64,000 nt of DNA, taken from NCBI RefSeq assembly GCF_003751225.1, contig NZ_RJKE01000001.1:4588001-4652000 (forward strand). The letters are read 5' to 3'. This DNA comes from Actinocorallia herbida. Its GTDB lineage: Bacteria > Actinomycetota > Actinomycetes > Streptosporangiales > Streptosporangiaceae. The notes beneath the pieces are model-generated. The model worked only from the letters and a program-made list of their open reading frames with translations. It was not told where the DNA came from and searched no databases. Shown in pieces: positions 45,254 to 46,709 of this stretch; position 1 is the first letter of the stretch, and every line of letters begins with the position of its first letter. Made by a program: the position numbers and the translations under genes.

Positions 45254-45628
45254 ATGGAAGCATCGACTGAGTCCCCCGTTGTGCGGACACGTCCTGGTTC
45301 CGACTGGCTGACCCTCAACGTCTAGACGCCCGACCCGGGGGCCGCCGGCCGGCCCGTCATGGTCTACCTCCACGGCGGCGCCCACCGGTTCGGCACGTCG
45401 GGCGAGTACGACGGCTCCGTGCTCGCGGCGCGCGGCGCCGTCGTGGTGACGGCCGCCCACCGGGTCGGCGCCGAGGGGTACCCCGAGCCCGCCGGAGCCC
45501 CGGCCAACCGGGCGCTGCTCGACCAGATGGCGGCCCCCGCCTACGACCTCCGAACCCGCCCGACCCGCGTCTTCGACGTCCCCGGCGGCATCGCCCCGTA
45601 CCCGTAAGAAGCCTCCCGCCTCCTCTGA
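45254..45628 (+). pseudogene. Carboxylesterase (type B) with two in-frame stops and an internal deletion
   Basis: An intact AGGAG and ATG at 45254 lead to SDWLTLNV, where the family tryptophan of LNVWTPD is replaced by TAG at 45323. The frame continues TPDPGAAGRPVMVYLHGGAH and ANRALLDQM, all characteristic of carboxylesterases, then jumps directly to the C-terminal RPTRVFDVPGGIAPYP, meaning ~300 central residues are missing, including the nucleophile elbow. A second stop (TAA at 45605) interrupts the usual PYP-x-EASR end, and the natural terminus TGA is at 45626. It is certainly inactive. Confidence 0.8.
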
Positions 45629-45733: not shown

Positions 45734-46219
45734 GTGGCAAAATCGACCGCTGCATGGGTGGGTGGGATCCTTGGCGTCGCGCTCCTGATCGTCGTGCTCC
45801 TCAATGTGGTGAAGCTCGAGGAGGCCAACCAGCTCGCAGGCGTCGTCGGCAGCATCGCCGCCGTCGTGGGGCTGGCCGTGTCTTTGCGCTCCATGCCGCG
45901 ACGCGGTCACGTGCGAAGGCACGGTTCGGATCTGCAGCCTTTGAGCGTGCAACTGGAAGGTTCACTCCGCTCCGGGGTAGGCGTCTCCACTTTCGTCGAG
46001 TTCGTCAACACCGGAGACGAAGTCGTCTCGATCCACTGGCTCGACACCGAGGGGAACCGGGTCCTGTATCGCCGGCTCGATCCCGGTGAGTCGTATGAAC
46101 AGCAGACTTTCGTCACCCACCCTTGGCTCGTATGCGGCGAGCAAGCGGGTCCCATCGCCATCTTCCAACCGGCCGAAACCAGAGCCCGCGCGCTGATCAC
46201 CTACCGGCGCTCTCATTAA
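45734..46219 (+). CDS. Two-TM protein with von Hippel-Lindau beta-like domain
   Basis: A 161-residue protein from GTG 45734. Two hydrophobic segments (about 8-27 and 34-51) are followed by a basic linker (PRRGHVRRHG). Residues ~83-147 resemble the VHL beta domain: FVEFVN, HWLDTEG, LYRRLDPGESYEQQTFVTHP and WLV. The human hydroxyproline-pocket residues W88, Y98, S111, H115 and W117 align without gaps to W102, Y112, T125, H129 and W131. Bacterial VHL-domain proteins exist but are uncharacterised. There is no elongin-binding alpha domain. It precedes an OsmC gene by 10 bp. Confidence 0.72.
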   Translation: MAKSTAAWVGGILGVALLIVVLLNVVKLEEANQLAGVVGSIAAVVGLAVSLRSMPRRGHVRRHGSDLQPLSVQLEGSLRSGVGVSTFVEFVNTGDEVVSIHWLDTEGNRVLYRRLDPGESYEQQTFVTHPWLVCGEQAGPIAIFQPAETRARALITYRRSH

Positions 46220-46229
46220 GGTCGTGGTC

Positions 46230-46709
46230 ATGACTCAGACCCACGCGTACGACGTCACGGTGGAATGGACGGGCGATCTCGGCACGGGCACGGACGGCTA
46301 CCGCTCGTTCAGCCGGGATCATGAGCTGCTCGGAGAGGGCAAGACGGCGATCGCCGCGTCGTCGGATCCGGCGTTCCGGGGCGACCCCGCGCGGTGGAAT
46401 CCGGAGGAGCTGCTGGTGGCCTCGGTCGCCCAGTGCCACATGCTCTGGTACCTGCATCTGTGCGCCACCGGCGGCGTGGTCGTCACCGGGTACGAGGACC
46501 ACGCCCACGGCGTCATGACCATGGACGAGGCCGGCGGCGGAGGCCAGATCACCGAGGTCGTGCTGCACCCGGAGGTGACCGTCACGGACGCCTCGATGGT
46601 GGAGAAGGCGACCGCGCTGCACGGCGAGATCCACGCCGTCTGCTTCATCGCCCGCTCGGTGAACTTCCCGATCACCCATCGGCCGACCATTCGAGTCCAT
46701 CCGAACTGA
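46230..46709 (+). CDS. OsmC/Ohr-family protein
   Basis: A 159-residue protein from ATG 46230 (a GTG at 46224 is also in frame). The two redox cysteines of the family occur in SVAQCHMLWYL (~70) and EIHAVCFIARSV (~136), with the usual NPEELLVAS loop before the first. Such proteins reduce organic hydroperoxides as homodimers with the active sites shared between subunits. It starts immediately after the VHL-like gene, so the two are probably one transcript, hinting at an oxidative or hydroxylation context (inference). Confidence 0.85.
   Translation: MTQTHAYDVTVEWTGDLGTGTDGYRSFSRDHELLGEGKTAIAASSDPAFRGDPARWNPEELLVASVAQCHMLWYLHLCATGGVVVTGYEDHAHGVMTMDEAGGGGQITEVVLHPEVTVTDASMVEKATALHGEIHAVCFIARSVNFPITHRPTIRVHPN

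What the first reader, a model, noticed from the sequence alone, without database searches (positions are those of the whole stretch)
45734..46219. Bacterial VHL-like domain that keeps the hydroxyproline pocket
Within a gap-free alignment of about 30 residues to human pVHL, W88, Y98, S111, H115 and W117 correspond to W102, Y112, T125, H129 and W131 here (Ser to Thr the only change). These five residues form the hydroxyproline-binding pocket. The domain is anchored by two TM helices and has no elongin-binding part. It suggests recognition of a hydroxyproline-containing ligand in a bacterium, possibly linked to peroxide/oxygen chemistry via the adjacent OsmC gene.
Basis: partly seen in the sequence, partly recalled or inferred. 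Interest (0 to 1): 0.8.

Follow-up and report, generated by a model that had tools for sequence, protein, structure and literature searches.

The report
Bacterial VHL domain with intact pocket
An actinomycete bacterium carries a small membrane-anchored protein that ends in a true relative of the human tumour suppressor pVHL, with the pocket that reads hydroxyproline in animals almost unchanged; what it binds in the bacterium is not known.

The parts
45734..46219 (+). gene for a 161-aa two-TM protein with a C-terminal VHL beta domain (GTG start, TAA stop)
45749..45889 (+). two-helix hydrophobic anchor, residues 6-52; followed by a basic stretch (RSMPRRGHVRRHG), which by the positive-inside rule would put the VHL domain in the cytoplasm
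   Evidence: AF2 helices 6-26 and 31-52; hydropathy 8-26 and 33-51; residues 1-66 have no match at E<=0.001 in 40 other relatives' genomes. Topology is inference
45959..46213 (+). VHL beta domain, residues 76-160 (seven predicted beta strands, block pLDDT 86-96)
46037..46126 (+). stretch holding the pocket residues W102, Y112, T125, H129, W131 (human W88, Y98, S111, H115, W117)
   Evidence: conservation
46224..46709 (+). OsmC-like gene, 4 nt downstream if it starts at GTG 46224 (10 nt if at ATG 46230), perhaps co-transcribed; the pairing was not seen elsewhere

Best explanation
The gene encodes a membrane-tethered ligand-recognition protein built on a true homologue of the pVHL beta domain. 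Shown: homology, predicted fold, near-identity of the five pocket residues; and that in relatives the domain is joined to Ser/Thr kinase, caspase-like and CHAT domains, and that W88, H115 and W117 are among its best kept residues in an independent survey. Inferred: in many relatives the domain lies outside the cell (one helix and a Pro-rich linker before it). Inferred: the aromatic W-Y-W box with the T/H pair binds a small proline-ring ligand, most likely a 4-hydroxyproline (or proline) residue in a peptide, and the tethered domain recruits or signals and does not lead to ubiquitylation, since it has no elongin-binding part. Inferred: the ligand is not made by a PF13640 hydroxylase of this cell, so it would come from outside (plant or animal hydroxyproline-rich protein, free Hyp) or from another hydroxylase family.
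Against: No binding data. Residues around Hyp in pVHL are not kept: N67, R69, F91, P99, R107, I109, H110 are G, G, T, R, Y, Q, Q here. In the class survey 8 of 17 domains lost both W88 and H115, and 2 more lost Y98. Y98 differs in 11 of 31. A non-pocket residue, N92 (human N78), is also 31 of 31 there. No PF13640 gene in the genome. The window protein stands alone: the only VHL match among 60 relatives is its own, 3 of 396 in its phylum by the Pfam model, 17 of 394 in its class by profile A3, so selection on this copy cannot be measured.
Confidence: 0.45

Rival explanations
1. The domain is a true VHL homologue with a binding pocket, but the ligand has no proline ring: the aromatic box takes another small or cationic group, a sugar, or a part of the cell envelope, and the animal Hyp-reading use is a later specialisation.
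For: Side-pocket residues differ from pVHL; Y98, whose OH holds the Hyp carbonyl, is the least kept of the five in the independent set, 20 of 31; 14 of 15 VHL-bearing actinomycetes tested lack PF13640.
Against: The Hyp-hydroxyl pair (T/S and H) and both Trp are well kept: T/S 27, H 31, W 30 and 29 of 31.
Confidence: 0.3
2. The pocket residues are conserved for folding only; the domain is a spacer or oligomerisation part with no small ligand.
For: Four of the five residues lie in predicted strands; some branches keep a recognisable domain without the pocket (8 of 17), so the family does not need a ligand there.
Against: Those same branches suggest that W88 and H115 are not needed for the fold; in pVHL they line the Hyp site; a His is the top column, 31 of 31.
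Confidence: 0.18
3. Animal-like oxygen sensing inside the cell: a prolyl hydroxylase of the same genome modifies a protein that this domain then binds.
For: In the surveyed phylum PF13640 genes are commoner in genomes with a VHL domain, 22 of 30, than in those without, 8 of 20 (Fisher p 0.038, not corrected for genome size; the 20 are the ones listed out of 252 without VHL).
Against: 0 PF13640 in the window's genome; 15 of 35 VHL-bearing genomes tested (35 of the 47 loci were given), 1 of 15 actinomycetes; 8 of 30 in the surveyed phylum lack it. Other 2-oxoglutarate oxygenase families were not searched.
Confidence: 0.06
4. It works with the downstream OsmC protein in peroxide/oxygen chemistry.
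For: Gap of 4-10 nt, same strand.
Against: No OsmC-like ORF in the 93 other loci held then, many short or repeats; 11 of 11 relatives with an OsmC match lack a VHL match.
Confidence: 0.04
5. Part of a bacterial conflict (immunity) system, the VHL domain sensing an invader-derived or modified peptide. This can hold together with the best explanation.
For: Fusions of VHL to caspase (C14), CHAT and Ser/Thr kinase domains in relatives.
Against: Caspase and CHAT fusions are one each among the 10 proteins scanned, which were picked for length; I noted nothing defence-like beside the window gene among the six neighbours scanned, and did not run a defence library.
Confidence: 0.1

Closest known systems
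pVHL beta domain (Pfam PF01847), human VHL, structures 1LM8, 1LQB, 4AWJ
   Different: No alpha domain for elongin C; two-TM anchor instead; Hyp-flanking residues (N67, R69, F91, P99, R107, H110) not kept
VHL-domain protein of Litorilituus sediminis EMK97_00595 (PMC9002001; abstract and Results section read)
   Same: A bacterial hypothetical protein with a VHL beta domain, reported in print
   Different: Described there as soluble, secreted and without TM; the paper argues for tumour suppression, and the parts read do not treat the Hyp pocket residues
Receptor-type Ser/Thr kinases with a C-terminal VHL domain in unnamed actinomycetes (L099, L102, L103)
   Same: VHL domain at the C-terminus of an anchored protein; all five pocket positions kept, T or S at 111
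   Different: Kinase domain and Pro-rich linker, absent from the window protein; VHL domain there judged outside the cell, here inside (both inference)

Membership tests
VHL beta domain family (PF01847) | score over Pfam's gathering cut-off | tested here: met
   28.2 bits, cut-off 21; 29.3 in the genome search
VHL beta domain family (PF01847) | pVHL beta-sandwich fold | tested here: met
VHL beta domain family (PF01847) | hydroxyproline pocket residues W88, Y98, S111, H115, W117 (seen in pVHL) | tested here: met
   four identical, S to T
VHL beta domain family (PF01847) | binds hydroxyproline peptide | not testable with these tools
   no binding assay or ligand modelling available
pVHL proper (E3 substrate receptor) | C-terminal alpha domain binding elongin C | tested here: not met
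   protein ends at residues aligned to pVHL 156-157
HIF-type PHD/VHL oxygen-sensing circuit | prolyl hydroxylase of family PF13640 in the same genome | tested here: not met
   0 matches in the 9.8 Mb genome at E<=0.01; other families not tested
OsmC-associated peroxide system | conserved neighbourhood of VHL and OsmC | tested here: not met
   with many short loci

The most novel reading that the evidence does not exclude
Hydroxyproline reading is an old bacterial trick: a widespread but patchy family of anchored or secreted VHL domains, some wired to receptor Ser/Thr kinases, senses (hydroxy)proline-containing peptides, and the animal oxygen-sensing reader pVHL descends from this family.
Probability: 0.25. 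Interest if true: 0.88.

Novelty: new variant of a known kind. Interest (0 to 1): 0.6.

Why it matters
A bacterial family in which this pocket is among the best conserved features offers a directly testable answer to what the pocket did before HIF, a small VHL domain free of elongins, and a possible ligand class for orphan bacterial receptor kinases.

Tried and rejected
Chance resemblance: rejected, though the single window sequence alone did not find pVHL in the PDB. OsmC partnership: rejected. Relatives of the two-TM anchor fused to other domains: only the window gene itself, 1 of 41 genomes. Phage or viral carriage: the L002 domain had no match in phages, and 27 pattern matches in viral contigs gave no confirmed relative; three plasmid records carry relatives. 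A second copy in the genome: none. Conserved neighbours: an all-against-all of ORFs in loci L006-L052 showed mainly that about a dozen Micromonospora loci are syntenic with each other; the largest cluster looks like low-complexity noise. NCBIfam gave no useful name.

Controls: with the VHL family at E<=1, 4 of 14 control genomes ring, none over the cut-off; at E<=0.01 none of 14.

Counts that need care: all five pocket residues are complete in 20 of 31 domains by the HMM alignment and 19 of 31 by MAFFT. The ranking is by information content; by plain frequency N92 ties with H129 (31 of 31). The scan used a pattern holding T, H and W of the pocket, so these three were judged on the profile surveys. 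One search lists 39 matches; leaving out G453's own, 31 of 38 were read (7 second or third matches came without a locus). Rows dropped: L043 (no ORF rebuilt), duplicates L015, L042, L044, L045, and L036, L049, L052 from alignment A2. One search was given 35 of the 47 loci. Only 18 relatives' proteins were scanned with Pfam; L031, L078 and L087 score no VHL there, and L105 and L111 only kinase-type families.

Papers: 9 of 10 literature searches ran (one search failed). The one paper on a bacterial VHL domain that I saw in these listings is PMC9002001. PMC9528729, PMC4295552, PMC5653532 and PMC9618697 were seen as passages only. That I saw no study of bacterial VHL pockets is a statement about these searches alone.

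Full report
Observation. The ORF at 45734-46219 (GTG start, 161 aa) carries two hydrophobic helices (8-26, 33-51 by hydropathy) and a C-terminal VHL beta domain. Pfam VHL scores 28.2 bits over a cut-off of 21, and it is the only VHL match in the 9.8 Mb genome. Aligned to pVHL, 18 of 60 positions are identical, among them L63, R64, S65, F76, N78, W88, Y98, H115 and W117; S111 is Thr125.

The family. A scan of genome contigs gave 47 loci in Micromonospora, Streptomyces, Embleya, cyanobacteria, Sericytochromatia, Chloroflexi, Pseudomonadota, Myxococcales and a planctomycete. W102 and Y112, not part of the scan pattern, are invariant in the 44 domains aligned, and kept in 46 and 45 of 47 in the fuller set. 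Since the pattern contained T, H and W, I repeated the question with profile searches. In the phylum of the Myxococcales genome 30 of 282 genomes match. In the 31 domains read there, the first three of 64 columns by information content are H129 (31), W102 (30) and W131 (29); N92, outside the pocket, is also 31 of 31 and ranks fourth; T125 is T in 23 and S in 4; Y112 is Y in 20. Columns that were invariant in the profile too (V127, P130) drop to 9 and 5 of 31, so the pocket is not a mere echo of the profile. Against this, the class survey (17 of 394 genomes, the window's own included) contains domains that have lost the pocket: 7 of 17 keep all five (the window, L096-L098 and three of L099-L103), 2 lose only Y98, and 8 lose both W88 and H115. 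Pocket and domain can therefore be separated, which argues that the residues are kept for a ligand where they are kept.

Architectures. By Pfam, relatives carry VHL after a protein kinase (L007, L015; L079, L099, L102, L103), a caspase-like domain (L028), CHAT (L039), SH3 (L041) and DUF3110 (L027). Kinases L105 and L111 have degenerate VHL ends that Pfam does not score. L007, L015, L079 and L099 match only part of the kinase profile, because of my ORF rule, the locus ends or sequence errors; L102 and L103 match all of it. L102 and L103 look like receptor kinases: kinase, hydrophobic helix, Pro/Thr-rich linker, VHL (helix and linker read by eye). Micromonospora proteins have one helix, then a Pro-rich linker and VHL, which suggests a domain outside the cell. 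By a simple hydropathy threshold 32 of 50 rebuilt ORFs have a hydrophobic stretch. In the window protein the basic stretch after the second helix suggests that the domain is inside. These sides are inference from the positive-inside rule.

Ligand and partners. In pVHL, Ser111 and His115 hold the Hyp hydroxyl, Tyr98 the carbonyl, and Trp88, Tyr98 and Trp117 line the site (PMC9528729, passages). All are present here with T for S. The residues that read the rest of the peptide are not. No PF13640 gene is in the genome; 15 of 35 other VHL-bearing genomes tested have one, 1 of 15 actinomycetes. Hence, if the ligand is Hyp, in actinomycetes it more likely comes from outside the cell or from another hydroxylase family. 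A Pseudomonas PHD-like enzyme, PPHD, can hydroxylate EF-Tu (PMC5653532, passage), so protein-bound Hyp is possible in bacteria.

OsmC. The downstream OsmC gene begins 4 or 10 nt after the stop, by start codon. No other locus held then shows an OsmC-like ORF, with the limits given above, and the 11 relatives with an OsmC match had no VHL match. The pairing looks accidental.

Known or new. The domain family is in Pfam, and one bacterial member has been described (PMC9002001, abstract and Results). A survey of the HIF pathway in eukaryotes reports VHL homologues in a choanoflagellate and Ascomycota (PMC9618697, passages). In the literature searches listed under Tried and rejected I saw no study of the pocket or of kinase fusions in bacteria. 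I file the protein as a member of the VHL beta domain family in a new architecture, and not as a pVHL E3 receptor.

Verdict. Homology and fold: near certain. A functional pocket: likely (about 0.75). A Hyp or Pro ligand: about 0.4-0.45. An animal-like oxygen circuit in this cell: about 0.06.

Noticed in passing
window 45341-45607 (+): Short ORF (45359-45607) in a stretch that reads like the decayed remnant of a carboxylesterase gene, upstream of the VHL gene (by eye).
   Followed up: no
L099, L102, L103 (also degenerate L105, L111): Receptor-type Ser/Thr kinases of actinomycetes with a VHL domain at the C-terminus; a possible unassigned sensor domain.
   Followed up: partly
L067-L095: Many VHL domains of this phylum have a Cys in place of R79 (16 of 27) and of G107 (18 of 31), perhaps a disulfide; several proteins look like lipoproteins by eye.
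   Followed up: no
L083, L091: Two VHL domains in tandem in one protein.
   Followed up: no
L076: A VHL domain inside a 2454-aa open frame whose start resembles SpvB/RHS-type proteins (by eye).
   Followed up: no
L004, L005: Relatives carried on plasmids of Nostoc and Calothrix, near an integrase and a resolvase gene; a third, in Jannaschia, is weak.
   Followed up: no
L104, L106-L110: A group of VHL-like proteins in which W88, Y98 and H115 are replaced by Y, Q and D.
   Followed up: no
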